This document shows positions 23,604 through 48,498 of a stretch of 49,578 nucleotides of DNA, in pieces; the first letter of the stretch is position 1; each line of letters starts with the position of its first letter. The position numbers and the translations under genes were made by a program. The notes under the pieces were generated by a model that made no database searches, was not told where the DNA came from, and saw nothing but the letters and a program-made list of their open reading frames with translations. The stretch is from a virus. The DNA is taken from positions 1 to 49,578 of the IMG/VR virus record IMGVR_UViG_3300045016_000121; one strand, written 5' to 3'.

Positions 23604-24086
23604 ACTCGCATTGATCAATGCGCGTAGTTTAGGTGAATGTTCTCGAATGATCGCTGCGGTACTATGATCATACTTTTTATTATATAGCTGCTCGTATAAT
23701 TCATCATTTAATGATTTATATTTCTGGTGATGTTGTATCATGCTGCGTCGCGACGCAAGTGCACCCGTGCTGGCATATGAATTCGTAATCACGCCATTGT
23801 CTATGGCTATGTATATGCTAAAATGCATAGATTGGTATGGACTTGGTGCACCTAGCTTAAATATATATGTAACCCATATTGTGGTGGCTTTAAACGTATT
23901 TATGAAGTCATCATATGGGTTTGGTGCCTTATATTGCTTAGCATAATCTTGGATGGCGGCGATAGCTTTATTCTCGTCGACATTTGAATACCATATGCGA
24001 TCACTATAAAGCCCACCGGCCCATTCTGTATCATCTAATGCCCTTAAATTCTCTGGAGCATCTATATTGATCGCATAATCAGCCAT
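23592..24086 (-). CDS. NPYDD-family protein 1 (164 aa)
   Basis: One of four paralogues in this window sharing an NPYDD motif about 30 residues before a Y-x-(A/L)-x-DNGVI-(T/E) segment. Here they read APNPYDDFIN and YIAIDNGVITNSYAS, followed by a helix and QLY. The start at 24086 (MADYAINID) is chosen because AAGGAGAC lies just upstream; the frame continues into the preceding gene without a signal. The conserved core looks like an alpha/beta domain of about 100 residues. Function unknown. It overlaps the upstream paralogue by eight bases. Confidence 0.7.
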   Translation of the reverse strand: MADYAINIDAPENLRALDDTEWAGGLYSDRIWYSNVDENKAIAAIQDYAKQYKAPNPYDDFINTFKATTIWVTYIFKLGAPSPYQSMHFSIYIAIDNGVITNSYASTGALASRRSMIQHHQKYKSLNDELYEQLYNKKYDHSTAAIIREHSPKLRALINASLPA

Positions 24087-24573
24087 CTTTTCGTCTCCTT
24101 GACCATGAGGTAATTGCGTCAACCTCATACTGGATGTCTACGGCGAAATCTTCAATGGCTTTAATTGTATGAGCATCGAACAGCCGATCTATAATGCTGT
24201 CCAAGAGATTCGAATAAATCATTAGAAAGCGTGAATCCGTGCTCACAAACCCTCGATTAACCGCATCCGGTGTGTCTTCAGACCATGGTGAATCAAGATA
24301 TGTCTCAATGACTACTCCATGATTATCCAAGTATAATATTAAATTGAATTCACTACCAGAGACGGTAATCGTAATGGCCTCGACTGCAAATGCATCATTT
24401 GTATCGTCATATGGGTTCATTACTGATTTTTGTAATTTGGCAATATACTCTACCAATTTACGCCTGTCTGGATAGTTCCAATATGCAAATTTATCGGCGC
24501 GACCATAGACAATGGGATGATCGTTGAATAATGGAGCTAATGTAACGTCTATTCTTATCTGGACTATGGTCAT
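24079..24573 (-). CDS. NPYDD-family protein 2 (164 aa)
   Basis: A paralogue of the downstream gene: MNPYDDTNDAF and LILYLDNHGVVIETYLD occupy the same places as in the other members. The ATG at 24573 follows the pseudopilin stop by one base (TAA-A-ATG), which suggests translational re-initiation; an in-frame ATG four codons earlier is possible. The N-terminal half has RADKFAYWNYPDRRKLVEYIAKLQ, matching the helix before NPYDD in the plus-strand copies. Function unknown. Confidence 0.7.
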   Translation of the reverse strand: MTIVQIRIDVTLAPLFNDHPIVYGRADKFAYWNYPDRRKLVEYIAKLQKSVMNPYDDTNDAFAVEAITITVSGSEFNLILYLDNHGVVIETYLDSPWSEDTPDAVNRGFVSTDSRFLMIYSNLLDSIIDRLFDAHTIKAIEDFAVDIQYEVDAITSWSRRRKDG

Positions 24574-24574
24574 T

Positions 24575-25651
24575 TTAACGACCATCTACACCACGTTGTG
24601 CTGCCACCCACCAATATGGTGCTTGCGTATAGAAATCGCCAGGATATCCAATAGTAAACCCGTCTTGCATGCTACCAGTACTAAGTTGATCAATCGTCCA
24701 CGCACCAGCGCCGAACCATCCCCAGATGGCACTCAGCGGCTTGTAAACCATCGTAATGCTGCCATCCACATTGACGCGAACAATTTCGGTTGGCAGTAAC
24801 CATGTACGGGAACTACCATCATCATAGAGTAAATTTACACTCTGCCCATCATGCGGCATCATGCTAGTGTCCGGCGGAAGCGGCGTCCACGTTGGTTGGG
24901 TTGAGTCCTCACGATATCCAAACCAGAAGCACGTCATGATCGGGGTATTGTGCGTCCATGGTGAACTCGGCCGACTTAGCAGACACGTAGTCCAATTGCC
25001 ATAATTGGGGTCAGTTGAATAGCCATTTGCCCATCGTGGGTCAGCGTCTGGCATATATACATCTCTAGCATATGCCCCGCCACGATAGAAATATGTGGTT
25101 ATAGTACCGCGCCCTTGCTTCCCAAAACCATTATAGCCTGTGTCGGGGATGCCAGTCCATGTCGAATACCAGGCATCATGCCCTTCGTACCATGTATAGT
25201 TTGCGCCAGCGCTGGCGGTGAAGCTAGCAGCCGTTCCGGGGCAGTAGAATAATCTCCCGTCACCCTCTATAAATGGGTATACATGGCCCATACCGCTCAG
25301 GCCAGAAGGTTTTTCGTCTTGCACACCGTATCCATATAGATAATCACGCCAGAAATCATCTCCATTGGTCATCCATGCCTGTAGACCGCCATAAAAATAC
25401 ATCGATCCCCACGGTTTTGACCAATATGTACCTTCCATATAGTTGAGCCCCGGGATTTGACCATATGTCTCAATATATTGTGAATAGGCTATGCCAAGGA
25501 TCCTTTGATTGGTCTGACAGGCGCTTGAGACTGCATAGTTCCGTGCTTGCCTAACGGCTGGGATTAATGTGACAATCATCGTTATTAATGTCGCTACTGC
25601 AATCGCCAATTCAAGCAGCGAAAACCCATGGTTGCGTTTATTATGTTGCAT
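24575..25651 (-). CDS. Pseudopilin with prepilin-type N-terminal cleavage/methylation motif
   Basis: A 358-residue protein. The start at 25651 is chosen for GGAAG five bases upstream. A short basic leader (MQHNKRNHG) is followed by the prepilin peptidase site G|FSLLELAIAV with Glu at +5, a 20-residue hydrophobic helix, and a large Trp/Tyr/Gly-rich globular domain (residues 45-358) ending in a VNLLYDDGSSRTW segment like the VNVLFADGHV region of planctomycete-type H-X9-DG/DUF1559 pseudopilins. It would be cleaved by a host prepilin peptidase and sit in the inner membrane or a type II-like filament. Such a gene in a phage is unusual and may be host-derived. Confidence 0.8.
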   Translation of the reverse strand: MQHNKRNHGFSLLELAIAVATLITMIVTLIPAVRQARNYAVSSACQTNQRILGIAYSQYIETYGQIPGLNYMEGTYWSKPWGSMYFYGGLQAWMTNGDDFWRDYLYGYGVQDEKPSGLSGMGHVYPFIEGDGRLFYCPGTAASFTASAGANYTWYEGHDAWYSTWTGIPDTGYNGFGKQGRGTITTYFYRGGAYARDVYMPDADPRWANGYSTDPNYGNWTTCLLSRPSSPWTHNTPIMTCFWFGYREDSTQPTWTPLPPDTSMMPHDGQSVNLLYDDGSSRTWLLPTEIVRVNVDGSITMVYKPLSAIWGWFGAGAWTIDQLSTGSMQDGFTIGYPGDFYTQAPYWWVAAQRGVDGR

Positions 25652-25674
25652 TACGCTTCCTTTCACTTGGCTAT

Positions 25675-25707
25675 ACTATTTTTGCACTGTTGATCACACT
25701 ATTTTTG
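25675..25707. promoter_or_regulatory. Direct repeat upstream of the pseudopilin gene
   Basis: ACTATTTTTG occurs at 25675-25684 and 25698-25707 (CAAAAATAGT on the coding strand), 23 bases apart, about two helical turns. They lie just before the pseudopilin start within the divergent gap 25652-25875. The spacing suits a dimeric regulator. No convincing sigma-70 promoter was identified in this gap, which otherwise appears to hold no gene. Confidence 0.3.
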
Positions 25708-25875
25708 TCGTATTTGAACCACCGTTGAGATCGCCCCGCAGGCATGGATTGACTTAATTGTCCAAGCCACGGTCGGTAGCTACTAGTGCCAACATTGTGT
25801 GGCCGAAGGTTGCGGCACGACTTTGGGCCAAGGCAAAAAGGGTTACTATCCACACGGAAATGAAATGAAACAAAA

Positions 25876-26184
25876 ATGAAAAGACACGTCGAACCTAACC
25901 CAGGCGGCATAAGCGTTACTATTCTTGAAGTTAACGATGAAGAATTTGACAAACTAGCTGGCATGATGCATGGTCTCGATCATCAGGGTAGTTTAATTGA
26001 TGATGAAGACATAGAGTCATTCAAAGAAAGCCGTATGATATTGAATATTTCGCGATGCAACGGTACGAGGAAATTGTTTGAAAAGCTCCTAATTGAGACA
26101 AAAACTCTTTCCATCCTAGTTGACGGCCATGATTATGGAGTAGGCAATGGTAATAAAGACAGTTTTGGAGAAACACAGTCTTAA
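25876..26184 (+). CDS. Hypothetical protein (102 aa)
   Basis: I do not recognise it. It is acidic in the middle (LIDDEDIESFKES), with beta-strand-like ends (SVTILEVNDEEFDKLAGM, TLSILVDGHDYG). It opens the plus-strand operon that carries the C-terminal part of DnaE. An opposite-strand frame covering its start is Ser/Pro-rich and was rejected. Function unknown. Confidence 0.6.
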   Translation: MKRHVEPNPGGISVTILEVNDEEFDKLAGMMHGLDHQGSLIDDEDIESFKESRMILNISRCNGTRKLFEKLLIETKTLSILVDGHDYGVGNGNKDSFGETQS

Positions 26185-26185
26185 A

Positions 26186-26341
26186 ATGGCCCTATATAAA
26201 ATGGCCGAATGTTTGGGCATTAAACCCAAACCACACAATTTATCCTGCGACATAACCAATATCCATGGATACTATGAATTAATAATATATGTGAATGAAA
26301 ATGCGTGTGACAAAGAGGCACCTGTGAATGAAAACAACTAA
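26186..26341 (+). CDS. Hypothetical protein (51 aa)
   Basis: The start at 26186 (MALYKMAECLGI) follows the upstream stop by one base (TAA-A-ATG), the same junction style as at 24573. The frame reaches back to 26147, but that would overlap the upstream gene by 38 bases. The product is small with an ITNIHGYYELIIYVNEN strand pair. Its last 14 bases overlap the start of the intein-C/DnaE gene. Function unknown. Confidence 0.5.
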   Translation: MALYKMAECLGIKPKPHNLSCDITNIHGYYELIIYVNENACDKEAPVNENN

Positions 26342-26453
26342 GATTATATCAATTAAACCAGCTGGCCGCCAGAGGGTCTTCAACATACATATGCAAGGTC
26401 CGCATCATAATTATATCACATCGCCAAGCCAAGGGCAACCAGTCCACAAGAAC
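26328..26453 (+). other. Split intein, C-terminal half (DnaE)
   Basis: A 42-residue intein-C fragment, a typical size for natural split inteins. It ends His-Lys-Asn before Ser+1, so the penultimate residue is Lys rather than the usual His. Its partner is the Cys1 fragment at 30771-31070 on the other strand. The insertion point, FNK|SHS, is three residues after the cyanobacterial DnaE split-intein site (which lies before CFNKSHS). Confidence 0.88.
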
Positions 26454-27578
26454 TCGCACTCCTGCGCCTATAGCGTAGTGGCGTATTGGACGGCATGGCT
26501 TAAAGCACACTATCCAGCTGAATGGTGGGCCTCGGTGGTGAATAACTGCGATAGAGATAAAATAAAGAAATACATTAACACAGCACGCGCCGACGGCATA
26601 AAACTTAACTCAATAGACATCGACAACATGGCGTCAACATTCTATGCCGATAAATCCGGCACAATCACAATGGGTTTATCAAGCATAAAGAACATTGGCG
26701 ACAAGAAAGCCGAGGAACTAGCCAAAATCTCACAAGATAGACTGCAGAAAGGGCTAAAATACTCCAGTATAGATGAATTCGTTGAAATTAACGGCAAAAG
26801 CAAAATCGTCATGCAGCGGTTGATTCATCTTGGCGCGTTCAAACATTTACATAACAATACTCACGCAGCTTGGGCTTGGTACTTGTACAAACATGGCAGC
26901 GCCAGCGATGAAAAACGCAAAATGAAAGAATTGATCAGAGCTAAAATAAACGAAAGAGACGGATGGACAAAAGATAAGATTGAAGTAGAACGCAAACGAC
27001 AAATTGAATTCTTCAAGTCATTCCATCCAAAGAAAAAGATACCAGCTAAAATATTAAACTGGGAACCCAATGCCAATAATCTTACGATTGAAGACATGGC
27101 TACCATAATACCAGATTATGACGCGCACATTAAATTTGAATTTGAAAGGGAATATCTAGGATACTATATACACTCACCGCTCGATCTATATGTTAAACCG
27201 AATAATTGCACACTAAGAGAAGCCCGCGAATATGAACCAGAAGATGAAAATGGGGCCACTATAGCTGGATTCATCGAAAGCTGGACTAAAGCAAAGTCAA
27301 AAAACAAAAATAACATCGGCAGAATAACCTTAAATGACGGCATTGAAACGGATAAAATAATCGTATGGAGCGATTGCATAAATATGGTTGACAATACATT
27401 ACAGAAAGCAATGCATGAAAAACGCCCCGTGAAATTTAGAGTTGAATATGCGGAAAACGAAAGAGACAGTAAAATCTTTCATTCACTAATATATAAGAAA
27501 ATCCTAATAATCAACGGTCAAGCACGCCCAAACATCCCCATTTTCCTCGATAGAATAACAAATGTCCCAACTGCCTGA
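26328..27578 (+). CDS. dnaE: DNA polymerase III alpha, C-terminal third, preceded by split intein C-half
   Basis: Residues 1-42 are the C-terminal half of a split intein (KIISIKPAGRQRVFNI, block F HHNYITS, block G PVHKN). Residue 43, Ser, is the +1 extein residue and opens SHSCAYSVVAYWTAWLKAHYP, the classic DnaE sequence after FNK. The rest gives the finger/thumb end (NTARADGIKLN), a helix-hairpin-helix (SIKNIGDKKAEELAK, about residues 119-133) and an OB-like domain (ATIAGFIESW, around 308-317). After splicing to the minus-strand gene at 30771-32603 it would rebuild the polymerase. Alone it has no catalytic Asp. Start overlaps the previous gene; AGAGG lies 10 bases upstream. Confidence 0.9.
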   Translation: MKTTKIISIKPAGRQRVFNIHMQGPHHNYITSPSQGQPVHKNSHSCAYSVVAYWTAWLKAHYPAEWWASVVNNCDRDKIKKYINTARADGIKLNSIDIDNMASTFYADKSGTITMGLSSIKNIGDKKAEELAKISQDRLQKGLKYSSIDEFVEINGKSKIVMQRLIHLGAFKHLHNNTHAAWAWYLYKHGSASDEKRKMKELIRAKINERDGWTKDKIEVERKRQIEFFKSFHPKKKIPAKILNWEPNANNLTIEDMATIIPDYDAHIKFEFEREYLGYYIHSPLDLYVKPNNCTLREAREYEPEDENGATIAGFIESWTKAKSKNKNNIGRITLNDGIETDKIIVWSDCINMVDNTLQKAMHEKRPVKFRVEYAENERDSKIFHSLIYKKILIINGQARPNIPIFLDRITNVPTA

Positions 27579-28059
27579 TAAAACCGGCATAGCCTGCGAC
27601 TATTGCCATTCCGAGATCAACTATGATTTTGTATACTATTCATGGGACTTCAGACGCATAAGGATGGTTAATAATACTAGATTGACCGGCAATGGAGACA
27701 TTATATTGTCTATCGACATATGTGATAGATGCATGGATATATTTAAAGATAGGATAAGGGTGGCTTATAAACCGCCGAGCGGTAATAATATATATTGCGA
27801 TATATCTGGCGCACAAATACCTTTAGATAATTCTGAATATTATCTATGCAACGTCACTGAAGTAAAAATTAAATTCTCTGACGCCAAACTTATGTGCGTC
27901 AAATGCAACAATCCAATGGTGGAAAATCAACCATGTGGTAAATGCGGCTCACTGACCGCCGATTTCAAGGCCACCATAAATGCTGACGACAAGTATTTAG
28001 AAATTGTGTTTAGCGATCGTATGTTTAGCATGTTGCAATACAGTGTAAATAAAGCTTAG
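27562..28059 (+). CDS. Multi-zinc-ribbon protein (165 aa)
   Basis: Four cysteine knuckles are seen: CDYCHSE (residues 12-15), CDRC (about 54-57), CVKCNNP (about 112-115) and CGKCGS (about 125-128), giving two zinc ribbons. Between them are beta-rich stretches (NIYCDISGAQIPLDNSEYYLC). It overlaps the end of the DnaE-C gene by 17 bases. A role as polymerase or transcription accessory is possible from position only. Confidence 0.65.
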   Translation: MSQLPDKTGIACDYCHSEINYDFVYYSWDFRRIRMVNNTRLTGNGDIILSIDICDRCMDIFKDRIRVAYKPPSGNNIYCDISGAQIPLDNSEYYLCNVTEVKIKFSDAKLMCVKCNNPMVENQPCGKCGSLTADFKATINADDKYLEIVFSDRMFSMLQYSVNKA

Positions 28060-28068
28060 GGTGAAACC

Positions 28069-28398
28069 ATGCCAGACACAGAAACACCATGGGATCTAGT
28101 AAAGGTTAATATAGGAGGTATTATGATAGATGCCAGACCAATTAAATGGGATGGCAACCCCATAGATAATGAAGGTCGAATGGCCACCGGCATAATGGTA
28201 AGACCACTATTATATATGACCACTTGCCCACATTGCGGTCAACTAATTGAATTTAAAGCTAACCACAAAACAGCCAAATGCCCATCATGCGGCAAAGGTG
28301 AAACATTCATAGAACCCATCCTAGACGAACAAGCGTTCGAACCATTCCTTGAATGGGTAGACATAGATCTATCAATATATAGGAAGGATGTGGCGTGA
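28069..28398 (+). CDS. Zinc-ribbon protein (109 aa)
   Basis: A single zinc ribbon, CPHCGQLIEFKANHKTAKCPSCG at about residues 53-75, is embedded in an otherwise unrecognised acidic protein (PFLEWVDIDLSIY). GGTGAAACC precedes the ATG but is a weak ribosome-binding site. Its stop overlaps the next start by four bases (GTGA). Function unknown. Confidence 0.65.
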   Translation: MPDTETPWDLVKVNIGGIMIDARPIKWDGNPIDNEGRMATGIMVRPLLYMTTCPHCGQLIEFKANHKTAKCPSCGKGETFIEPILDEQAFEPFLEWVDIDLSIYRKDVA

Positions 28399-29297
28399 AA
28401 TATATTCTCGGAGGCGGCCTTATAGGATTGATCGCCAGAGACATATTGGGGCCATCATATAAATTAATCCCAATGGGTCGCAGCCTATATTATTCATGGA
28501 ATCCACCCTTAGCCGACAACCACATCATAAAAGGTGAAGACATCGACGAGTATATAGCACAATATGCTACCATACCGTTATATATCAAACATGCATTCAC
28601 CCTGGGCGGCCATCTAACAAATGACATGACATTATTGCCGGATTGGCTGAATAAGATGCATGACAATAAGCCACAACCACACTGCGAAATATATTACAAA
28701 AGCCACCTTGAATACTGGGCTATGGGGGACTGCCATAAAATATATAAGAGCTTACAGTCTAAATATAAAAATGAAATCGCAGACGGCATATCGAACGGTA
28801 ACGCAAAAGCGATTGACTGGCGAAACCACATCATTAAGACTGATAAACAGTCATTCCAATATGACAATCTACTAAGCACGATACCGCTAGACGCCCTAAT
28901 AGCCATGGCGGGCATTAATGTTCATTTATCAGCCTGTGATACATGGTATTATCACGTCGAGACGCCGTATTTGGGCTTCGAAGGTAATTATGGGGTATTG
29001 GTGGTCGACAAGAGCTTGCCAGATATATTTAAGGCAATCAAAATAAGCGATAATAATTATATATTCATGGCCAATAGACAATTAAAACTACCCGGGGCGT
29101 TCTTTCACCTATTCATCAAGGATTTCAGGTTGATAGCCGAAACATCCGTCCCAAGATCAATCCCATGTGGCTTAATTCAAGAAATAACCGAGTTCACGGA
29201 CGGCGGGATTAAGACAATTGGCAGCACAGCTTCGTGGGATAGCTGCCAGGATGTTGGCACATGCATTAAACGCCTATTAAAAATGCGCAATGGATAA
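28395..29297 (+). CDS. Rossmann-type FAD/NAD(P)-binding oxidoreductase-like protein
   Basis: A 300-residue protein starting MKYILGGGLIGLIAR, a GxGxxG dinucleotide-binding fingerprint at the very N-terminus. Later FQYDNLLSTIPLDAL resembles the YDxLISTIPL segment of UDP-galactopyranose mutase and protoporphyrinogen/amine oxidase-type flavoproteins, and a final GIKTIGSTASWDSCQDVGTCI is where such enzymes have a second FAD-contacting GD motif, here altered. It may modify a nucleotide sugar or another small molecule. The acidic residue expected after strand 2 is not clear, so cofactor use is uncertain. Overlaps both neighbours. Confidence 0.6.
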   Translation: MKYILGGGLIGLIARDILGPSYKLIPMGRSLYYSWNPPLADNHIIKGEDIDEYIAQYATIPLYIKHAFTLGGHLTNDMTLLPDWLNKMHDNKPQPHCEIYYKSHLEYWAMGDCHKIYKSLQSKYKNEIADGISNGNAKAIDWRNHIIKTDKQSFQYDNLLSTIPLDALIAMAGINVHLSACDTWYYHVETPYLGFEGNYGVLVVDKSLPDIFKAIKISDNNYIFMANRQLKLPGAFFHLFIKDFRLIAETSVPRSIPCGLIQEITEFTDGGIKTIGSTASWDSCQDVGTCIKRLLKMRNG

Positions 29298-29886
29298 AAT
29301 CGCACAACTTAAATTAATTAAAGATTCATGCCAGCACTGTGGCATGTGTCCACTGGGCCACAATAAGCCCGAAGGCAAAGACCCACACGTCTTTAGCAAC
29401 CTAGACTTGCTCCAACTTCCAAACATCATGGTCGTTGGTCAAAATCCAGGATGGAATGAAGTCTTGCAAGGCACACCATTTGTTGGTGAAGCTGGCAGGA
29501 ATTTTGACAAAGAACTCGAGAAAGGTAGCGTCGACCGCAGTTCACTATATATCACCAACATCGTCAAATGCCACACACCGGGCAACGCCAAGCCCGACGA
29601 CAATAACATCAACATGTGCAAATCATATTTGAACCTTGAAATCGGCATCATAAAGCCAAAATTCATAGCCACACTTGGGTCCGTAGCTTTTAAAACATTA
29701 TGCCCAGACATGAACTATAATGACAACATAGGGAAACTCGTCAACAGCACCGTCTTCCCATATAAGATATTTGCCATATTACATCCTTCTCCATTAAACC
29801 TGGCCGACCCAGCAAGACGTAAAAAATTCGTCAAATGCATGAATTATTTCACACGCATGGTCCAATATATCATAACGCCCTTTTGA
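29290..29886 (+). CDS. Uracil-DNA glycosylase, family 4 (Fe-S)
   Basis: A 198-residue family-4 UDG. N-terminal cysteines (SCQHCGMCPLG, residues 14-20) and later CHTPGN and MCKSYL supply a [4Fe-4S] site. Motif 1 is VVGQNPGWNE with G-x-PFVGEAG following, the middle motif is ITNIVKCHTPGNAKPD, and motif 2 is HPSPLNLADPARR, which inserts into DNA. It removes uracil from DNA and so implies that this phage keeps thymine rather than uracil DNA. It overlaps the oxidoreductase-like gene by eight bases and is followed by the duplicated NPYDD genes. Confidence 0.9.
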   Translation: MDKIAQLKLIKDSCQHCGMCPLGHNKPEGKDPHVFSNLDLLQLPNIMVVGQNPGWNEVLQGTPFVGEAGRNFDKELEKGSVDRSSLYITNIVKCHTPGNAKPDDNNINMCKSYLNLEIGIIKPKFIATLGSVAFKTLCPDMNYNDNIGKLVNSTVFPYKIFAILHPSPLNLADPARRKKFVKCMNYFTRMVQYIITPF

Positions 29887-30778
29887 CCTCCTCGAAACGC
29901 TAGCAAATATAATGCGTGATAATCTCAAGTGTTTTCATACCCAAAATCCTCCCAGCATTACCGCGCTATTCAGCATCTCATGCTTCATTTCCAACCGCCA
30001 TATATGCACAATATCGCAACGTTAACAGCAACGACATAATAGAATACGCCGACAATTTGAGCCGTGTACACGTTCCACCAATGAATCCATATGATGATAC
30101 CGATGATAAATTTGTAAATGCATCCATATTGCTTTGCTGCCATGGATGTATAGGCCATGGCCAGACTTTGTATGTTACTTTAGCGGACAATGGCATAATT
30201 ACTGACGTATATAGCACGAGTCGTGACGTGGCACGTGATCATTTCGATTGGTTTCAGATAGCCAAAAAACATATTGGACGCATACCTGACACAGAATTTT
30301 TTACAATCATTCAACACATCGAATCTATTTAGCTTGCATTTTGACCTTCTTGAAACGCTAGCAAATATAATGCGTGATAATCCCAAGTGTTCTCATACCC
30401 AAAATCCTCCCAGTATTACCGCGTTACCCAGCATTTTATGCTTCATTTCCAACCGCAGTATATGCGCACTATTACAACGTCAGCAGCAACGACATAATAG
30501 AATACGCCGACAATTTGAGCCGTGTACACGTCCCACCAATGAATCCATATGATGATACCGATAATAAATTCATAGACGCATCCATATTGCTTTGCTGCCG
30601 TGGATGTGTAGATATTACTTTAGCAGACAATGGCGCAATTACTGACGTATATAGCACGAAACGTGACATGGAGCATAATTATTCTGATTGGTTCCAGATA
30701 GCTAAGAAACATGTTGGACGCACGCCCAACCCAGAATTTTTTACAATCATTCAACACATATCGAATCTATTTAGTTTG
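29881..30778. repeat. Tandem duplication of about 455 bases
   Basis: Bases 29881-30333 and 30339-30778 are two copies of one segment (offset about 458), including the non-coding lead-in GAAACGCTAGCAAATATAATG and the whole NPYDD gene. The second copy lacks 18 in-frame bases in the middle (after GGATGTGTAG) and differs at scattered positions, several of them silent, so the duplication is not brand new but is younger than the split from the minus-strand paralogues. Confidence 0.85.
29916..30332 (+). CDS. NPYDD-family protein 3 (138 aa, GTG start)
   Basis: It shares PPMNPYDDTDDKF and LYVTLADNGIITDVYS with the minus-strand members at 23.6-24.6 kb and is nearly identical to the next gene. No in-frame ATG fits, so a GTG at 29916 is taken as start, with no obvious Shine-Dalgarno sequence. 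The helix NSNDIIEYADNLSRVHV precedes the motif as in the paralogues. Function unknown. Confidence 0.65.
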   Translation: MIISSVFIPKILPALPRYSASHASFPTAIYAQYRNVNSNDIIEYADNLSRVHVPPMNPYDDTDDKFVNASILLCCHGCIGHGQTLYVTLADNGIITDVYSTSRDVARDHFDWFQIAKKHIGRIPDTEFFTIIQHIESI

Positions 30779-30790
30779 TATTTATACTGA
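30374..30790 (+). CDS. NPYDD-family protein 4 (138 aa, GTG start)
   Basis: The tandem duplicate of the previous gene with the same GTG start, PPMNPYDDTDNKF and DITLADNGAITDVYS. It is six residues shorter in the middle and has a slightly different C-terminus (SNLFSLYLY). Its end overlaps the convergent DnaE-middle/intein-N gene by 20 bases, so the intein-N stop lies inside this gene on the other strand. Function unknown. Confidence 0.65.
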   Translation: MIIPSVLIPKILPVLPRYPAFYASFPTAVYAHYYNVSSNDIIEYADNLSRVHVPPMNPYDDTDNKFIDASILLCCRGCVDITLADNGAITDVYSTKRDMEHNYSDWFQIAKKHVGRTPNPEFFTIIQHISNLFSLYLY

Positions 30791-31070
30791 TTACATCTAA
30801 GTCGCCATCAATTATCTCTCTAATTGTATAGTACTCACCGTCAGAGCACAATAATTTGTGATCTAAAGTGGTTTTTAGAGTTACACCATTGCCAAGTTGA
30901 ACCTCATATATCTCCTGCAATCCATTATCTATGGTTTCAACCATTTCGTTAATGATCGGCTCGCGATCATAGCTTAATAGATGGAACTTTCTGGGGTTCT
31001 TATGCAGTTCACCAATCGTCGTTGACTCGCCAGTCTTGGGATCAACTATAACCGTATCCTCGCTAAGGCA
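30771..31070 (-). other. Split intein, N-terminal half (DnaE)
   Basis: A 99-residue intein-N fragment beginning CLSEDTVIVDP (block A). It contains NGVTLKTTLDHKLLCSDG (block B with the T-x2-H pattern) and ends at DVISINTN. There is no endonuclease domain. The fragment stops where natural split inteins are usually broken, between blocks B and F. Confidence 0.9.
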
Positions 31071-32603
31071 TTTATTGAAGGCATACCTGCCGAAGGTTTC
31101 CATTCTTTTCCAATATTCTTCAGCCCAGGTAGCCCCGAGAGTCTTGGTGGCCCCTTTGATCCATTGCTCTTTAATTGGCTTGAGCTTATGCGTCCATTTC
31201 TTGGCCACAGCCTTACGTGCGGCCTCTGCCTCGGGGGCCGTAAACCCACCGAATTGTCTCCAGGCTTGAGCCAGGGCCTCTTGGAAGATAATGATCCCCA
31301 ACGTATCTTTTAGCATCTTGGCCATCTCAGGATGCTCTTCCTGCACCCATGTCTCTTCTGTATCATTCCGTCTTCTGACGTAATCAGGGATCATGTCAAT
31401 CGGGCCAGGATGCCCGAGAGCGTTGAAAATTTGTAGGTCTTTGAAGTCGTTTACGCCGTTCGCCAGTGCACCGCGTTGAATGTCTGTCTCAAACTGGAAT
31501 ACCGTTTCCAATCGTAGCTGGTTGATCATTTCGAACGTCTTCTCATCATCCATCTTGATGAAGTGTTTATTGTTGTCTGCGTCATAATAATATCCTAAAT
31601 GCTTCTCGTTGGGGTCCATGCCATCCCATGGTATGACGTTAAACCTTATATTGTGATTTTTGGCGATTGCGTTGCAGCATTCATAGATATATTGTAGAGT
31701 TCTGAGTCCTAGGATGTCCCATTTCACGTACCCAAACTTTGACAATTGGGCGTTGCGCCCTTCGGTCCACGTGCTGACTTTATGCCCGCTGGTGATGGCC
31801 ATTGGCACATTGCCATATAGGGCATTGTTTGATATGATTAGTCCTCCGGCATGCATGGATAGGGCCTTCATCTTGCCTATTAGTCTCACGGCCATGTCGA
31901 CGACACTGGTCGTGTATTCATCTTTGTGATAGTATTGCGCTAATTCTTCGAACTTCTCTATCGCCATGCCGATAGTTAGGCCGTCTTCAACTTCCGTACA
32001 TCCGCATTTGCATTTTGTCTTATCGTGTTTCTTTTTGCACCTGATGCACGCGCACATCCCATTTTCTTGTATTTCATCGACGTCATCTGGCATTGTAGTT
32101 GTGGCGTCGAGGGCTTCCCTGAACCTAATGTTTCTAATATTGTCTTGATCGGCTTGGCCTGATTTCTGATCTGATTTCTGATATGGGCTTAAAGCTTTTG
32201 CTACATCCTGAATTGCGGATCTGAATTTATAGGTTTGATATATCGCTACGCTGCATACTTTATCTTCGCCATATTTCTCGCGAGCATATTCTTTTATCTT
32301 CTCTCTGGCTGATGGAAGATAGTCGCAGTCTATGTCAGGGTAATCCGTCTGCTGTATCCAGATGTGTTCAGTGCTTGGCCTGACGGACGTCATACCCAAT
32401 ATCCATGGCAATATTAACCCGCTTTTATTTGTATGATATCTATATTTCTCATTATATTGTTGTGCAAACCCTCCATTAGCGCCCTGTTTCTCAAATTCAG
32501 CGATCTCAACCTTTAATTTCTTGACGTGTACATCATCTAGATTTTGCTCCTTAGCCTTTTGGAGCGCTAGCATCTTTAAATCAGACCATTCTAATTGGGG
32601 CAT
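30771..32603 (-). CDS. dnaE: DNA polymerase III alpha, middle third, followed by split intein N-half
   Basis: The protein has 610 residues. After a unique N-terminal stretch (1-85) comes YPDIDCDY with catalytic Asp 90 and 92, then REKYGEDKVCSVAIYQTYKFRSAIQDVAK, a Cys-rich insert (CACIRC...CKCGC, 184-202) likely binding zinc, HAGGLIIS (251-258), WDILGLR with the third catalytic Asp (296), and ALGHPGPIDMIPDYVRRR. The extein ends GRYAFNK (511). Residue 512 is Cys1 of intein-N, which runs to the stop. Splicing in trans to the plus-strand gene at 26328 would restore FNK-SHSCAY. Replicative polymerase core; the PHP part is a third gene. Confidence 0.92.
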   Translation of the reverse strand: MPQLEWSDLKMLALQKAKEQNLDDVHVKKLKVEIAEFEKQGANGGFAQQYNEKYRYHTNKSGLILPWILGMTSVRPSTEHIWIQQTDYPDIDCDYLPSAREKIKEYAREKYGEDKVCSVAIYQTYKFRSAIQDVAKALSPYQKSDQKSGQADQDNIRNIRFREALDATTTMPDDVDEIQENGMCACIRCKKKHDKTKCKCGCTEVEDGLTIGMAIEKFEELAQYYHKDEYTTSVVDMAVRLIGKMKALSMHAGGLIISNNALYGNVPMAITSGHKVSTWTEGRNAQLSKFGYVKWDILGLRTLQYIYECCNAIAKNHNIRFNVIPWDGMDPNEKHLGYYYDADNNKHFIKMDDEKTFEMINQLRLETVFQFETDIQRGALANGVNDFKDLQIFNALGHPGPIDMIPDYVRRRNDTEETWVQEEHPEMAKMLKDTLGIIIFQEALAQAWRQFGGFTAPEAEAARKAVAKKWTHKLKPIKEQWIKGATKTLGATWAEEYWKRMETFGRYAFNKCLSEDTVIVDPKTGESTTIGELHKNPRKFHLLSYDREPIINEMVETIDNGLQEIYEVQLGNGVTLKTTLDHKLLCSDGEYYTIREIIDGDLDVISINTN

Positions 32604-32615
32604 CCTTGGCTTCCC

Positions 32616-33149
32616 TTATGATTTCGGCTTGGCAGTTTTGCTGGGCTTTGGGGCTGGCTTTTGGGCTGGTTCCGGGGCCGGGGCTGGCTCCGGGGCTGGT
32701 TCTGCATTCGAAACCGATTTCTCCGATGAGACGCCGTTCTTCATAATGCTCTTCAAAGTCCTCTGGCAAATAACAAATCCTTTATCTCTCACGGATGAAG
32801 ACACCTTGATCACGCTATATGTATCCAGCTCATTCCTGACATCTTTGATTAACATCTTATTCACTTTTGGATTCCCAACCCACTCATCATCAACTTTGTT
32901 TAATAACGGTCTGACATGTTTTGACGTTGTGTTAATAGTCATCTTATATCCCCTATATTCCGGTTTAATACGCTTGGCTGCCAAAAGTATGGCTATAAGG
33001 TCTAGTTGATTTCTAGTAAATCCTATTAATCGATCCTCCGTCAAAATCATGACCCTAGTTGTCTTGCCATTCGATGCTTCAATGTGGCTAACTATATATC
33101 CCACATTATCTTTCAAATCACTAATCACGCTTATTTTTGTGTACTCCAT
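32616..33149 (-). CDS. Hypothetical protein with Pro/Ala tail (177 aa)
   Basis: Residues 1-130 look folded (SVISDLKDNVGYIVSHIEASNG, VMILTEDRLIGFTRNQLDLI). The last 40 are a repetitive AEPAPEPAPAPEPAQKPAPK tail with basic end. It lies between the PHP and middle parts of DnaE on the same strand, 12 bases before the middle part. It could be a bridging subunit of the fragmented polymerase, but nothing in the sequence proves this. Otherwise unrecognised. Confidence 0.65.
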   Translation of the reverse strand: MEYTKISVISDLKDNVGYIVSHIEASNGKTTRVMILTEDRLIGFTRNQLDLIAILLAAKRIKPEYRGYKMTINTTSKHVRPLLNKVDDEWVGNPKVNKMLIKDVRNELDTYSVIKVSSSVRDKGFVICQRTLKSIMKNGVSSEKSVSNAEPAPEPAPAPEPAQKPAPKPSKTAKPKS

Positions 33150-33164
33150 GATTGCTTCCTTACT

Positions 33165-33563
33165 TCACTGTACTTTTACCTCTATTAATGCCTCTAATGG
33201 CTTCAAATCGTCGTTTGATTTTACGACCTTCATCAATATCTCAGTATACTTATTATAGGCAGCCATAACTTCATTCGCCTGCAATAGCGCATCGGCCGCC
33301 TCAACGTCATCAGCGGCCATCTTGTATTGCTCGGCAAATGCCGTCGCGATGGATCTCTGAATTAAAACAGCAGCCTTAAACACATCATTAGAAGCACTCT
33401 TCCCGCTTATAATGCAATCATATCCATCTATTAATATATTAGCAACCGTGGCCATTATCTTATCGCTCTCATTGCCGACCAATTTAAATAGCAACACCGA
33501 CGAGCGCTTCAGACAGCATATGGCTACCGGCAAAAAGTTTTCCTGGTTAGCTACTTCCACCAT
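33165..33563 (-). CDS. Hypothetical helical protein (132 aa)
   Basis: Alanine-rich helices dominate (AAVLIQRSIATAFAEQYKMAADDVEAADALLQANEVMAAYNKY, given in part), with no metal or membrane motif. It overlaps the following upstream gene by 13 bases and belongs to the minus-strand unit that runs from the PHP fragment to the middle fragment of DnaE. A coiled-coil or four-helix protein is plausible. Function unknown. Confidence 0.6.
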   Translation of the reverse strand: MVEVANQENFLPVAICCLKRSSVLLFKLVGNESDKIMATVANILIDGYDCIISGKSASNDVFKAAVLIQRSIATAFAEQYKMAADDVEAADALLQANEVMAAYNKYTEILMKVVKSNDDLKPLEALIEVKVQ

Positions 33564-33778
33564 CTTCGTGTCTCCCTACCACGTTTATCCTTAACTACCT
33601 CAACAGTAATGCGACACTTGACCAGTTTAACACCTTTAAGATCTGGCATATGGGGGCATGGATATGCTACCTCACGGATATTATTATATACAAACTGTGG
33701 TACACACCATCCTATCTGCCCGTCGCTCCATCTCCCAGTCCAACCATATGCTACTGATTTATTTTTATCGCGAGCCAT
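33551..33778 (-). CDS. Hypothetical basic protein (75 aa)
   Basis: A small Trp- and Lys/Arg-rich protein (YGWTGRWSDGQIGW, VVKDKRGRETRRWWK) with a single PCPHMP segment. The composition suits nucleic-acid binding, but no family is recognised. It follows the PHP-fragment gene by three bases, so the two are probably translated together. Confidence 0.6.
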   Translation of the reverse strand: MARDKNKSVAYGWTGRWSDGQIGWCVPQFVYNNIREVAYPCPHMPDLKGVKLVKCRITVEVVKDKRGRETRRWWK

Positions 33779-33781
33779 GAT

Positions 33782-35179
33782 TCACTCCAGTTTAATGTTT
33801 AGAAGCTTTCCGCCTCGACTCTCACTCAGAAACCTATCAAACGACAAACCCCACGCAAGTGGATCAAGGGACGTAATCCCAAGAAGATAGCACACTAACG
33901 AACCGCCAACGCTCCCCCTCGGTCCTACCGGGCTACGCATGTTCACAACGCTATGATTCACTAAATCCTCAGTTATCAAGAAATAACTCGAAAAATTCTT
34001 GTTTTCGATCCGTCGCAATTCTATGGCCGCCTGTTCAGTATATGTAACCATCCTATTATCCATCAAATATCTCTTCTTGATGTTGTTAAGCCCACGTTTG
34101 GCAAGTTCACTCTTTACTTTAGCCACCAGCTTACCATAAGCATTCTCATAATTAGGCACTTTGGGAGACTTATCCAACGTATAAGTCTCACATTTCCGAG
34201 CTACCTCCAAAGTATTATCGCACATATCATTAAAATGCCAATCCTTAACATGCTCATGGTATTTATTTGACTTAAACGTATCCCACAACTCAGCTCTGGT
34301 TTTAAAATACTGTTCGTCTGTCTTGGAGTAAAACAACTCTGGATCGTTTATCGAAGTTTTCTGCTTTGTAGCCATCATAATTCGCTGCAATATGGCGTCG
34401 CTTTTGGACATATAATGCGTATCGTTTGTCAACACCTTTTTGATGCCGTATTCGTTGGCATACGAATTGAGAATCCAAAATATCATATAGTCATCTATCT
34501 TGCCATCCTCATGCGGCAAGCATGGCATCTGCAACTCTATATAAAAATCATCGCCGAACAACTCCCTGAATTTTAGGATATGTTTCTTGACAGCATCCGA
34601 GTCTCTTCTCGCCGCCATAAAATCCTGATACCTGCCATATTTCCGTATCTCATGTGAGATCAAACCATTCAAACACCCACTTAATACAATCAATCCATCT
34701 TTAAACTTTATTAAATCATCGAAAGTAATCCTAGGATACCCGCGGAATTCATTTTGCCACGCATCAGTGGCCATACAAATAAGATTTCTGACGCCGACGG
34801 CATTTTTGGCCAATATGGTGATATGTCTATTCTTGGCCACCTGATCATATATGTCCAATATCTCACGCTCGCCAGAATCCTTGGCCTGATTTATCGCAAA
34901 TCCCTTACTCTTCAATAGAGCAACCAATTCATCACGCCTTCTTGCTGAATCATTAAAGTACATCTCTATACCTGGAATATACTTTATACCGTGCTCAATG
35001 GACGCAAAATGCGCATCGGGCATCGAGGCTAAATTGCCATGCTCGGTTATAGCCAGGGCTGGCCACCCTCTTGTCTTACACTCGGCAAACATTTGATCAG
35101 GGGTGGCGACGCCATCCAACAGACTATAAACACTGTGCACGTGAAGGTGCACAAATCCGGCTGGACCATCATAGGGCAT
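33782..35179 (-). CDS. dnaE: DNA polymerase III alpha, N-terminal third (PHP domain)
   Basis: A 465-residue protein. The PHP phosphoesterase signature is present: FVHLHVHSVYSLLDG (residues 9-23), ITEHGN (44-49), IPGIEMYF and a LTNDTHYM histidine motif. It continues through the palm start to SPVGPRGSVGGSLVCYLLGITSLDP and FDRFLSESRGGKLLN, then stops just where intact DnaE would run on to the first catalytic aspartates. It therefore ends a short way before PDIDCD, which is in the next DnaE gene. There is no intein at this break, so the pieces must associate non-covalently. PHP metal residues look intact, so proofreading or pyrophosphatase activity is possible. Confidence 0.92.
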   Translation of the reverse strand: MPYDGPAGFVHLHVHSVYSLLDGVATPDQMFAECKTRGWPALAITEHGNLASMPDAHFASIEHGIKYIPGIEMYFNDSARRRDELVALLKSKGFAINQAKDSGEREILDIYDQVAKNRHITILAKNAVGVRNLICMATDAWQNEFRGYPRITFDDLIKFKDGLIVLSGCLNGLISHEIRKYGRYQDFMAARRDSDAVKKHILKFRELFGDDFYIELQMPCLPHEDGKIDDYMIFWILNSYANEYGIKKVLTNDTHYMSKSDAILQRIMMATKQKTSINDPELFYSKTDEQYFKTRAELWDTFKSNKYHEHVKDWHFNDMCDNTLEVARKCETYTLDKSPKVPNYENAYGKLVAKVKSELAKRGLNNIKKRYLMDNRMVTYTEQAAIELRRIENKNFSSYFLITEDLVNHSVVNMRSPVGPRGSVGGSLVCYLLGITSLDPLAWGLSFDRFLSESRGGKLLNIKLE

Positions 35180-36229: not shown

Positions 36230-36596
36230 TCATTTTTTCAGTCGTCTTAAACCATGCAACCATTTCATTTACACTAGTGGGATTTGATAAATCCCACGAA
36301 GTCCAAGCCGTGAGTCTTACGTGTGCACGATGTCTATAATTATTAATGCTTACCACTCGCAAAATCGCGTTATGATATATACAATGCATCATAAGGTGCT
36401 CCCCTATTAGTGTGACAGTATATTCATTGTGATTGGTGCGGCATTGCGCACTGAAACAATCAATGCAAAATATTCCTGGCATGCAGATAGCATTGGGGCA
36501 GGTATAATTTGTGTTGGACGTTATAGCATGTATTGCCGCATTAAGTACCGTGTTGCCTGTTTGCCCTAACCTCAAACGACCGCATTTACGTTTCAT
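36201..36596 (-). CDS. SVNE-family small protein 2 (131 aa)
   Basis: Matches the downstream gene at NTVLNAAIHAIT, GEHLMMHCIYHNAILRVVSI and SWDLSNPTSVNEMVAWFK, at perhaps 30-35 percent identity by eye. It is richer in cysteine (CPNAICMPGIFCIDCFSAQC), suggesting a metal site lost or reduced in the other copy. Its ATG overlaps the stop of the actin-like gene by four bases (ATGA). Function unknown. Confidence 0.6.
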   Translation of the reverse strand: MKRKCGRLRLGQTGNTVLNAAIHAITSNTNYTCPNAICMPGIFCIDCFSAQCRTNHNEYTVTLIGEHLMMHCIYHNAILRVVSINNYRHRAHVRLTAWTSWDLSNPTSVNEMVAWFKTTEKMNVSSRPSRH

Positions 36597-37615
36597 TCAC
36601 ATGCCTCAGCGGCAATCAAACATCCCTCAGCGACCGCAAACAAAGTCCTGGGATGAACAATGACCTCAGTAACCACAAAAGGCAACCGCATGCCGCGCAA
36701 AACCTTCTCAAAATATGCCCCAAATCCAATAGGCATGGCCGTCCCACCCGCCAGAACAAATGGCACCTCCAACACTTTAGCCTTATCAGGATTGTTCACG
36801 AACCCATCAATAATTCCCTTAACGACATTTTCAATCAACACCTGATAAGCCACAGCCACAGCTTGATCGACCCTATCCATGCTGGCTATCGTCTTGGTTA
36901 AATCGATAGCCTCTTTACGTTTACAAATAGTTGTTGGAGTCTCTTGGCTACGCTTATCGGGCCTATCAGGATCATATCCAAACTGCCTAGCTGCCTCGAT
37001 ATCTATGTAATCTCCAGATCCAACCAGCGCAAACTCAAAAATCGGCATCTTCGAAATATAGTATCCGACGTTCACCATCCCCGCACCAAGACTAATGGAT
37101 ATTACATTGTCCTTCTCACTGGCTATGGCCAGCGCCCTGGACTCGCTAATATGGTTTGCTTTGATGTTAACTTGTGACCTCTTATACCCATCTATAATCA
37201 TTTGGACAATTTTCTGGTGCATCTGCACGTTTACTTGTTTATTAATGGCATTTGAAGGTACGCAATAATATATCAAAGCATCCTGCTCGAGTTTGCCCAT
37301 TATGGCATGGACTATGGAGGCCATCAGAGCTATGGCTTCCTGCTCTCGGCTTATAGTTCCATCCGCCATTGGCCGCCGCAAAGTTGAATTCACAGCATAT
37401 GCAAACTGTTCGGCCTTACGCCCAAGAGCATATATCCTTCCATCCCTGTCAACGAAGGGAATCTGTTGTTTTGTCAATAACTGTTTTGTGAATGCGTCAG
37501 GGTTGGGGAATTCGTAGAATCCATTGATCTCATGTTTAAATATTGGGCGACCATCCTCACCCCTACGGGCTGATACGATTGTTTTCGTGCCTATATCAAG
37601 GCCTACTTTTAGCAT
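36593..37615 (-). CDS. Actin-like ATPase (ParM/MreB superfamily)
   Basis: A 340-residue protein with the actin/Hsp70 ATPase fold motifs: phosphate-1 VGLDIGTKTIVSARR (residues 4-18), connect-1 around ESRALAIASEKDN, phosphate-2 ISISLGAGMVNVGYY (about 172-186), and adenosine motif FVLAGGTAMPIGF (about 285-297). It lacks the HSP70 substrate domain and is the size of ParM/MreB-type filament proteins. It could build a filament that positions or segregates phage DNA, or act as a virus cytoskeleton. No ParR or centromere repeat is evident next to it. The adjacent small genes downstream may be partners. Confidence 0.8.
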   Translation of the reverse strand: MLKVGLDIGTKTIVSARRGEDGRPIFKHEINGFYEFPNPDAFTKQLLTKQQIPFVDRDGRIYALGRKAEQFAYAVNSTLRRPMADGTISREQEAIALMASIVHAIMGKLEQDALIYYCVPSNAINKQVNVQMHQKIVQMIIDGYKRSQVNIKANHISESRALAIASEKDNVISISLGAGMVNVGYYISKMPIFEFALVGSGDYIDIEAARQFGYDPDRPDKRSQETPTTICKRKEAIDLTKTIASMDRVDQAVAVAYQVLIENVVKGIIDGFVNNPDKAKVLEVPFVLAGGTAMPIGFGAYFEKVLRGMRLPFVVTEVIVHPRTLFAVAEGCLIAAEACE

Positions 37616-39312: not shown

Positions 39313-39532
39313 TTTTCTCTTCTATGTACTAGGTGATGGCGATTGTCTTTAGTTGTCTTTTATATACGTTGACGGGGTGCGTAATTATTTGGCTGTCAAT
39401 TGCTTGATGATTGATTTCAACGATGGTGGAATTCTTTGTCTGGTGGCGTATTTTTAATTTGGGTTCTGAATAGTTATGTTTCGTCAAACATATTATCGTA
39501 TCATTTTCGGGGGATTTAACAGGAGATGTTCG

Positions 39533-47826: not shown

Positions 47827-48440
47827 ACATTTTCTTTACGGCCGATACGCATTTCGGGCATAAAAATATATTGAAGTATGCTTCCAGACCGTTTAAGTGC
47901 ATTAGAGACATGGATGAACGGTTGATAGAGAATTGGAACATGATAGTTCCAATGGATGGTATGGTCTATCATCTTGGTGATTTTGCGTTTAAGGGTTCAC
48001 CGAAGTATCATAGGGATATTGTTAGTCGGCTTAATGGTAAGATATGTTTGGTGCGTGGTAGTCATGATAAGTTGGCCATTACTCAGTTAGGTAATAGGTT
48101 TGAATGGATAGAGAAATATTATGAATTGGTGTTTGATGACGTTGATGCACCGATGAATCAGAGGTTCATTGTGTTGTGTCATACTGCTTTTAGGGTGTGG
48201 GAGCGTTCTCATTATGGTTCTTGGAATTTATATGGGCATTCGCATGGACGGTTATCGGATATTCCGGGTGCGTTAGCGTTTGATGTTGGGGTGGATAGTG
48301 CGGCCAAGTATTTTGGGCATGGAGATCCTATGCCAGAGAATTATAGGCCTTTTACATATCAAGAGATAAAGGATGTTATGGCGGGAAAGGTTAATGGAGC
48401 CGGGCGGATTTGCACCGCCGTCACGGATGATAAGCATTAG
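47823..48440 (+). CDS. Metallophosphoesterase
   Basis: A calcineurin-like phosphoesterase of about 205 residues. It carries the full metal-binding set: FTADTHFGHKN (D-x-H), YHLGDFAF (GD), RGSHDK (here GSHD in place of GNHD), VLCHTAF and YGHSHG (GHxH). The start is taken as TTG at 47823, overlapping the previous stop (TTGA); GTG at 47811 is an alternative. It could be a nucleotidase, phosphodiesterase or DNA/RNA end-processing enzyme. The Ser for Asn change in the third motif is uncommon but keeps a polar ligand. Confidence 0.85.
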   Translation: MNIFFTADTHFGHKNILKYASRPFKCIRDMDERLIENWNMIVPMDGMVYHLGDFAFKGSPKYHRDIVSRLNGKICLVRGSHDKLAITQLGNRFEWIEKYYELVFDDVDAPMNQRFIVLCHTAFRVWERSHYGSWNLYGHSHGRLSDIPGALAFDVGVDSAAKYFGHGDPMPENYRPFTYQEIKDVMAGKVNGAGRICTAVTDDKH

Positions 48441-48468
48441 GGCTTTACATGCTTCTGCTATTGGCTTT

Positions 48469-48498
48469 TAGCTGCTGGCTAGCAGTATCAGGCAGCTA
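48469..48498. repeat. Inverted repeat downstream of the metallophosphoesterase gene
   Basis: TAGCTGC (48469-48475) pairs with GCAGCTA (48492-48498); the loop can fold further (TGCTGGCTAGCA). It lies 29 bases after the stop, so it may end or stabilise the transcript. There is no T-run after it. The surrounding 48441-48717 stretch is otherwise without an assured gene. Confidence 0.45.

What the first reader, a model, noticed from the sequence alone, without database searches (positions are those of the whole stretch)
26328..35179. Replicative polymerase DnaE broken into three genes, two rejoined only by a trans-splicing split intein on opposite strands
Seen: the PHP part (33782-35179, -), the catalytic middle ending in intein-N (30771-32603, -), and intein-C plus the C-terminal part (26328-27578, +). 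GRYAFNK|Cys1 and Lys-Asn|SHSCAY join to the canonical FNKSHS of DnaE. Known: DnaE split inteins in cyanobacteria and 'fractured' genes with split inteins in environmental viruses. New aspect: three genes, one break without intein, the intein halves on facing strands about 3.2 kb apart, so no read-through transcript could ever make one protein.
Basis: partly seen in the sequence, partly recalled or inferred. Interest (0 to 1): 0.9.

Follow-up and report, generated by a model that had tools for sequence, protein, structure and literature searches.

The report
DNA polymerase split across three genes
An uncultured phage, probably a giant one, encodes its bacterial-type DNA polymerase as three separate proteins: two carry the halves of a self-splicing element that should stitch them together although their genes face each other on opposite DNA strands, and the third must simply dock; relatives show step by step how the gene came apart.

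Summary
A C-family (DnaE) polymerase is encoded as PHP part (33782-35179 -), catalytic middle plus IntN (30771-32603 -) and IntC plus C-terminal part (26328-27578 +). IntN and IntC are a proper split intein inserted at FNK|SH. About 38 related contigs (up to 408 kb) explain the layout. The PHP|palm break is ancestral: separate genes in all 34 contigs that show both parts. It is not a clean cut: the middle gene starts with a decayed second copy of the palm segment that ends the PHP gene. The intein break is sporadic: most relatives have none; several carry split intein plus a Vsr-like endonuclease gene (classical 'fractured gene'); the closest, L150, keeps only endonuclease debris; the window has none. 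In every relative the C part follows on the same strand. In the window one inversion of about 4.5-5 kb, with a breakpoint at the intein, flipped it. So the novelty is narrower than claimed: distant dnaE halves are known from cyanobacteria, and intein-free split phage polymerases are known. Still, the series intact > fractured > endonuclease lost > inverted makes a proposed route of gene breakage testable. Splicing and assembly are inferred. Misassembly is unlikely but not excluded.

The parts
33782..35179 (-). DnaE part 1: PHP domain plus start of palm, 465 aa, ends at FDRFLSESRGG; carries the GPRGS..GS motif
   Evidence: AF2 pLDDT 90 and Foldseek to PolIII alpha E 3e-28
33815..34129 (-). palm segment copy X (PHP residues 351-455), intact, with GPRGS motif
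   Evidence: profile match to the head of the middle gene, E 1.7e-9; upstream parts of PHP give none
33165..33563 (-). 132 aa gene between parts 1 and 2, unknown
   Evidence: similarly sized ORFs at this place in L088 and L089 (position only)
32616..33149 (-). 177 aa gene between parts 1 and 2; homologous gene at the same place in relatives; RNase H-like by eye only
   Evidence: L088, L151, L153, L155, L159, L165, L174, L181; no Pfam match
30771..32603 (-). DnaE part 2: palm and fingers with all three catalytic Asp, fused to IntN; 610 aa
32349..32603 (-). decayed second copy X' of the palm segment (residues 1-85 of part 2), GS motif lost
   Evidence: hhalign 98.4% / E 7.6e-15 to one-piece DnaE, 96% / E 3.4e-9 to PHP tails; positional control
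30771..31070 (-). IntN, 99 aa from Cys1 (CLSEDT..TTLDH..DLDVISINTN) and stop codon; last codons lie in the inversion junction
30756..30783 (.). inversion junction 1: end of the second unit of a 440-458 bp tandem duplication runs into the 3' end of IntN
26328..26453 (+). IntC, 42 aa, ends VHKN before Ser+1
26454..27578 (+). DnaE part 3: C-extein (SHSCAY.., helix-hairpin-helix, OB-like end)
26328..30783 (.). inverted block: IntC-C part, 27562, 28069, 28395, UDG 29290 and the tandem pair 29916/30374; outer left limit uncertain (25667-26327)
   Evidence: gene order of about 38 relatives
29290..29886 (+). uracil-DNA glycosylase gene, conserved member of the inverted block
   Evidence: PF03167 E 2e-26
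25664..26327 (.). inversion junction 2 region: 102 aa ORF 25876-26184 and 51 aa ORF 26187-26340, no homologue found, no endonuclease remnant

Best explanation
A DnaE polymerase made of three gene products. Parts 2 and 3 are translated from different, convergent transcripts. Their intein halves find each other, the intein excises itself, and a peptide bond joins ..FGRYAFNK to SHSCAY.., giving palm-fingers-C-terminal domains as one chain (anatomy shown, reaction inferred). Part 1 (PHP plus the first palm segment with the dNTP-binding GS motif) binds this chain without covalent linkage, so the active site is completed in trans (inferred). The PHP|palm break is ancestral in this phage family and arose with partial duplication of the palm segment. 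The second break arose when a split intein with a Vsr-like homing endonuclease entered dnaE. The endonuclease then decayed (as in sister L150) and was lost, and in the window's lineage one inversion of about 4.5-5 kb with a breakpoint at the 3' end of IntN turned the IntC-C part-..-UDG block round.
For: Domains and junctions. Orthologous IntN/IntC at the same site in L150, L152/L153, L159, L088, L166/L167, L168 and (in cis) L170, with Cys1, block-B T..H, HN(Y), terminal Asn and Ser+1 kept. Endonuclease between the halves is Vsr-like (TIGR00632 E 5e-4). L150, closest relative (tree clade window+L150+L151, 100/97), has only its N-terminal ~230 residues and a C-terminal scrap. Gene order ParM-PHP-RNH-MID-C-Zn-28069-FAD-UDG-p21483-RecA-DnaB is co-directional in the relatives; C is on the MID strand in all but the window. 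Restoring the block also makes the paralogues 29916/30374 and 24079 co-directional. PHP and MID separate in 37 of 37 loci (34 contigs). X/X' duplication. Single DnaE in 10 of 12 large relatives. Both parts model well and match PolIII alpha.
Against: No reads, so the inversion rests on one assembly. No splicing or binding data. The PHP-middle interface could not be modelled (single chains only). The intein lacks the usual penultimate His (Lys here) and the block-F Asp, though cyanobacterial DnaE inteins also lack that His (PMC5874633). The contig is a fragment, so a second dnaE elsewhere cannot be excluded; 2 of 12 large relatives have a second, shorter finger-bearing ORF. A PolA-like gene exists, so the replicative role is not proven. 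No exact copy of junction 1 was found in other viral contigs, which is uninformative.
Confidence: 0.75

Rival explanations
1. Assembly artefact: the block is really on the MID strand and the facing-strand layout is a misjoin; the genome would then be an ordinary fractured or split-intein dnaE.
For: One contig only; no reads; a tandem duplication (440-458 bp) ends exactly at junction 1.
Against: No long inverted repeat that could mislead an assembler (best pairs 20-26 nt at 73-81%). Block genes are closest to L150/L151, like PHP and MID, so no chimera of two genomes. All ORFs across both junctions intact; IntN has a stop codon at a normal length. Inversion of neighbouring genes (FAD-28069-Zn) is seen independently in L088 and L165, so local inversions do occur here.
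Confidence: 0.12
2. The intein no longer splices; parts 2 and 3 work as unligated subunits, or the polymerase is dying.
For: Non-canonical penultimate Lys and no block-F Asp; endonuclease gone, so only splicing keeps the intein under selection.
Against: All ORFs open; Cys1, T..H, HN, terminal Asn and Ser+1 kept across diverse members; catalytic Asp residues and PF17657 core intact. IntN and IntC are on different strands and would be shed easily if useless.
Confidence: 0.1
3. The PHP protein is not a polymerase subunit but an independent PHP hydrolase; the middle's own copy X' supplies the palm segment.
For: X' is homologous to the same segment and is modelled with confidence; the two genes are always separate.
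Against: Only the PHP copy keeps the invariant R-G-S / GS motif (X' has lost it in all 17 heads). The PHP protein extends through the DnaE palm entry to SRGG, which a free hydrolase would not need. It is always encoded near the middle gene.
Confidence: 0.15

Closest known systems
Fractured genes with split inteins and free-standing Vsr-like endonucleases in phage metagenomes (Dassa et al. 2009, NAR 37:2560; content from memory, paper not held; cited in PMC6892783 and PMC7090010)
   Same: Enzyme gene broken by a split intein; sister loci L088, L152/L153, L159, L166/L167, L168 have exactly IntN - Vsr-like endonuclease - IntC
   Different: Window has lost the endonuclease and carries the halves on opposite strands after an inversion; a second, intein-free break in the same enzyme
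Cyanobacterial split dnaE inteins (Ssp, Npu DnaE)
   Same: Same protein, same Hint fold, same IntN/IntC split position; halves on separate genes
   Different: Insertion at FNK|SH, four residues after the cyanobacterial Y|CFNKSH site (latter from memory); Ser+1 instead of Cys+1; phage; PHP part is a further gene
Genes-in-pieces of T4-like phages: Aeh1 nrdA/mobE, T4 gene 39/60, phage 25 and 44RR gene 43A/43B (PMC2988022)
   Same: Essential enzyme split without intein; pieces assemble and 43A/43B have polymerase activity; L150, L088 and L165 have an endonuclease-like gene right after the PHP part
   Different: C-family polymerase; break universal in the family; both products carry a copy of the same ~85 aa palm segment
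PolB split by a split intein plus HNH endonuclease in jumbo phage MIJ3 (PMC6892783)
   Same: Jumbo-phage DNA polymerase in two genes with a split intein
   Different: B-family; two genes, endonuclease still between them

Membership tests
C-family (DnaE) DNA polymerase | PHP, palm/NTPase (PF07733), fingers (PF17657) and HhH in this order | tested here: met
   spread over three ORFs
C-family (DnaE) DNA polymerase | three catalytic Asp (two in PDIDxD, one in KxDxLGL) | tested here: met
   D90, D92, D94 and D296 conserved in A5; aligned to Taq
C-family (DnaE) DNA polymerase | polymerase activity of the assembled enzyme | not testable with these tools
   needs expression of all three proteins
Naturally split intein | N-terminal splicing region with Cys/Ser1 and block B T..H | tested here: met
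   TIGR01445 over its cut-off; alignment
Naturally split intein | C-terminal region with HN, terminal Asn, and Ser/Thr/Cys +1 | tested here: met
   GPHHNYI..VHKN|S; penultimate His absent, as in DnaE inteins (PMC5874633)
Naturally split intein | halves on separate polypeptides that splice in trans | tested here: inconclusive
   separate polypeptides shown; splicing not testable
Fractured gene (Dassa type) | conserved enzyme gene broken in two by a split intein | tested here: met
Fractured gene (Dassa type) | free-standing endonuclease gene between the intein halves | tested here: not met
   no endonuclease similarity above chance in the window; met in L088, L152/L153, L159, L166/L167, L168
Cyanobacterial DnaE split-intein allele | same insertion site | tested here: inconclusive
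   profile NF005616 (cyanobacterial dnaE-C) aligns with an offset of 2, consistent with a site 4 residues upstream, but no cyanobacterial gene was aligned here
Genes-in-pieces (intein-free break 1) | pieces on separate ORFs with no intein at the break | tested here: met
   37 of 37 loci; no intein motif at PHP end or middle start of the window
Genes-in-pieces (intein-free break 1) | endonuclease gene at the break | tested here: not met
   not in the window; present right after PHP in L150, L088 and L165
Genes-in-pieces (intein-free break 1) | pieces assemble into an active enzyme | not testable with these tools
   needs co-purification

The most novel reading that the evidence does not exclude
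In this giant-phage family the DnaE palm is always built from two polypeptides: the PHP protein donates the dNTP-binding GS segment in trans, while the catalytic subunit keeps a decayed copy of that segment as a placeholder (or gate) that PHP must displace or dock onto, so catalysis is tied to the PHP subunit. In the window a third piece joins by trans-splicing from the opposite strand.
Probability: 0.3. Interest if true: 0.75.

Novelty: new variant of a known kind. Interest (0 to 1): 0.62.

Why it matters
Split inteins with halves far apart or on opposite strands are thought to come from a fractured gene by later rearrangement, but intermediate states are rarely seen together. Here one gene in one phage family shows the empty site, the fractured state with endonuclease, the endonuclease-decayed state and the rearranged state. 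The same enzyme also carries an older intein-free break with a duplicated palm segment, conserved across the family, which allows a direct test of how a C-family polymerase active site works when split. The intein pairs are new candidates for trans-splicing tools.

Tried and rejected
Single-protein searches for close relatives in viral contigs found none for middle and C part; alignments were needed. First idea that the middle's N-terminal 85 aa is a lineage-specific insertion loop: rejected, because one-piece DnaE relatives have only ~12 residues between FERF and PDID, while the profile shows it is a second copy of the preceding segment. Idea that the inversion was mediated by long inverted repeats: none found. 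Endonuclease remnants in the window: none above chance. Search for a second contig carrying junction 1, and for the FGRYAFNKCL motif in DNA: no hit (the second pattern fixed one Phe codon and was too strict). Promoter and terminator scan near random. Foldseek coordinates of X' within the palm could not be read from the output; no complex model was possible.
Full report
Observation. The window is a whole IMG/VR record of 49,578 bases, classed as linear, so probably a fragment. PHP part, middle and C part match PF02811/PF07733, PF07733/PF17657 and HHH_6 and line up end to end with Taq and E. coli PolIII alpha. The middle ends in 99 residues that score above the curated cut-off of the intein N-terminal model. 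These 99 and the first 42 residues of the C part together match DnaE inteins in the PDB, with the IntN/IntC border at the same place as in Npu DnaE. Joining at the predicted splice sites gives TFGRYAFNK-SHSCAYS, the unbroken reading of relatives such as L087 (FGRYAFNKSHAVAYS) and L004 (FGRYAFNRAHAVAYC).

Relatives. Close relatives appeared mostly with alignments as queries. Scans of viral contigs gave about 38 contigs of one family, many over 200 kb and up to 408 kb, at 34-54% identity in the middle part; L150 and L151 are closest and form a supported clade with the window (100/97). No named phage is close (best matches about 25-31%).

Break 1 (PHP | palm). In all 37 loci where both parts are present (34 contigs, window and the outgroup L008/L018 included) PHP and middle are separate ORFs, with about 0.4-3.2 kb between them. 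The PHP proteins end at a conserved F-x-RF..(S/A)RGG.. tail, just before the catalytic PDIDxD, which opens the middle's core. The middle does not start at PDID: it has about 85 extra residues. These are not an insertion, because one-piece DnaE relatives have about 12 residues between FERF and PDID. Profile comparison shows they are a second copy of the segment before PDID: 98.4% probability, E 7.6e-15 against one-piece DnaE; 96%, E 3.4e-9 against the family's own PHP tails. As a control, sliding along PHP gives significant matches only in windows that reach the last ~140 residues (E 7e-10 and 1.7e-9 for 326-440 and 351-465) and nothing upstream of residue 250. The PHP copy keeps the invariant R-G-S and GS residues; the copy in the middle has lost them. 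So break 1 is an overlap break: both products carry the segment, one intact, one decayed. This fits a partial duplication followed by loss of complementary parts. L150, L088 and L165 have an endonuclease-like gene directly after PHP, so endonuclease insertion, as in the T4-like genes-in-pieces (PMC2988022), is a possible cause.

Break 2 (FNK | SH). Most relatives have no intein here and read straight through. Orthologous intein halves at the same site occur in L150, L152/L153, L159, L088, L166/L167 and L168; L170 has a cis intein there. In L152/L153, L159, L088, L166/L167 and L168 a gene of about 510-570 aa, Vsr-like by TIGR00632 in L088 (E 5e-4) and homologous in the others, lies between IntN and IntC and overlaps or abuts both, the classical fractured layout. 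In L150 that gene is reduced to its first 230 residues and a C-terminal scrap. In the window nothing is left. On the tree the intein is patchy, as expected of a mobile element.

Inversion. Gene order in the relatives is ParM-like actin, PHP, RNH-like, middle+C, Zn-like, 28069-like, FAD-like, UDG, 21483-like, RecA, DnaB, co-directional. In the window everything keeps this order and orientation except one block, from IntC-C part to UDG and a tandem gene pair, which is reversed in place. One inversion explains it, and putting the block back also makes the paralogues 29916/30374 and 24079 co-directional (similarity E 1e-4). Junction 1 is precise: the last codons and stop of IntN lie in the end of a 440-458 bp tandem duplication belonging to the block. 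The left end is less sure (25,667-26,327). No inverted repeat longer than 26 nt was found, and the block genes are closest to L150/L151 just as PHP and MID are, so neither a repeat-driven misassembly nor a chimera is likely; without reads it cannot be excluded. A different inversion, of FAD-28069-Zn, occurred in the L088/L165 lineage.

Mechanism. Shown: three intact ORFs, complete splicing motifs, conserved catalytic residues, confident models of part 1 (pLDDT 90) and part 2 (80.7) that match PolIII alpha. Inferred: trans-splicing of parts 2 and 3; non-covalent docking of the PHP part to complete the palm. Ten of twelve large relatives carry a single DnaE, which argues that the split enzyme is the only DnaE. 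A short PolA-like gene is also present, so calling it the replicative polymerase is reasonable but not proven. Non-canonical features of the intein are the penultimate Lys and the missing block-F Asp; the lack of penultimate His is shared with cyanobacterial DnaE inteins (PMC5874633).

Comparison. It works like the cyanobacterial split DnaE, like fractured phage genes (Dassa 2009, from memory) and, for the PHP piece, like genes-in-pieces polymerases (phage 25 gene 43A/43B co-purify and are active, PMC2988022). It is not a fractured gene in the strict sense, since the endonuclease is missing (tested, not met), though its relatives are. A jumbo-phage PolB with a split intein and endonuclease is known (PMC6892783). 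New are the combination of both break types in one C-family polymerase, the duplicated palm overlap, the inversion, and the graded series of states in one family.

Verdict. Real, explained mostly by known processes, and a good natural series for them. New variant of a known kind.

Noticed in passing
L169:10555-10640, L175:9945-10035, L176:1610-1700, L183:10455-10545, L089:5450-5540, L199:160-245: In six relatives the catalytic motif PDI|DxD of DnaE is itself cut by a stop codon and a change of frame: GTT TGA C in L169 (like the prfB +1 frameshift site; sister L187 reads GTT GAC), ATA TAG AT in L175/L176/L183, GAC TAG T GAC in L089 (matched take-off and landing codons, like a short T4 gene 60 bypass), CCA TGA GCG T GAT in L199. 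L175/L176/L183 have no ATG, GTG or TTG in the core frame before DxD, so a frameshift or bypass seems needed. Not in the window.
   Followed up: partly
L169:9950-10611, L175:8562-10004, L183:9950-10515, L089:4864-5499: Upstream of that cut, after the decayed palm copy, an intein-like split element without an obvious Cys1: N piece ends ..GDEL*, small C ORF MKIVKINI..GAYN.SGI.VLP.IGIPHR.EY..DLPDI*. No Pfam or NCBIfam intein match.
   Followed up: partly
L170:11330-12640: Cis intein (396 aa) at the same FNK|SH site; a LAGLIDADG endonuclease ORF (11685-12509, PF14528 E 1.3e-7) lies inside it in another reading frame, while the intein frame stays open throughout: an overprinted endonuclease.
   Followed up: partly
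L088:2747-4810: Cis mini-intein of 178 aa inside the GPRG|S motif of the PHP part, in a genome that also has the fractured FNK|SH intein.
   Followed up: partly
L159, L166, L167, L177, L182: dnaE is a hot target: further insertions at PHP ~71, ~253 and ~422 and in the middle at ~414 and ~443; in L182 an intein N-half lies inside the fingers.
   Followed up: partly
L142:8494-17608: A distant viral DnaE in at least four pieces.
   Followed up: no
L016, L024, L032, L035: DnaE ORFs stop about 33 residues after FNKSH; a small ORF that looks GIY-YIG-like by eye follows.
   Followed up: no
window 39476-42391 (+): Ribonucleotide reductase (RTPR-like, ATP-cone) with an intein; TIGR01445 at residues 468-551.
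   Followed up: no
L088:4824-6392, L087:14681-16054; similar genes in L150 and L165: Putative endonucleases (DUF559/MTES_1575-like) fused to a Mom/GNAT-like domain (PF25680, PF00583).
   Followed up: no
window 36593-37615 (-): Volactin-type viral actin (PF25216 E 3e-44), conserved upstream of dnaE in the relatives.
   Followed up: no
window 14980-16179 (-) and 12189-13085 (-): Short PolA-like ORF (PF00476 E 7e-8, just under cut-off) and a separate 5'-3' exonuclease gene; PolA-like genes also in 11 of 12 large relatives.
   Followed up: partly
window 29881-30783: 440-458 bp tandem duplication giving two paralogous 138 aa ORFs, related to 24079-24585 on the other strand.
   Followed up: partly
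window 24575-25666 (-): Protein with a prepilin-like N-methylation motif (PF07963, weak).
   Followed up: no
window 48395-48680 (-): ARAGORN predicts a tmRNA with an unusually long tag (33 aa, ends LAA); may be spurious.
   Followed up: no
records of L160 (86513-86884 -) and L156 (1517-1873 -): A second, shorter finger-bearing DnaE-like ORF (561 and 588 aa frames) in two large relatives.
   Followed up: no
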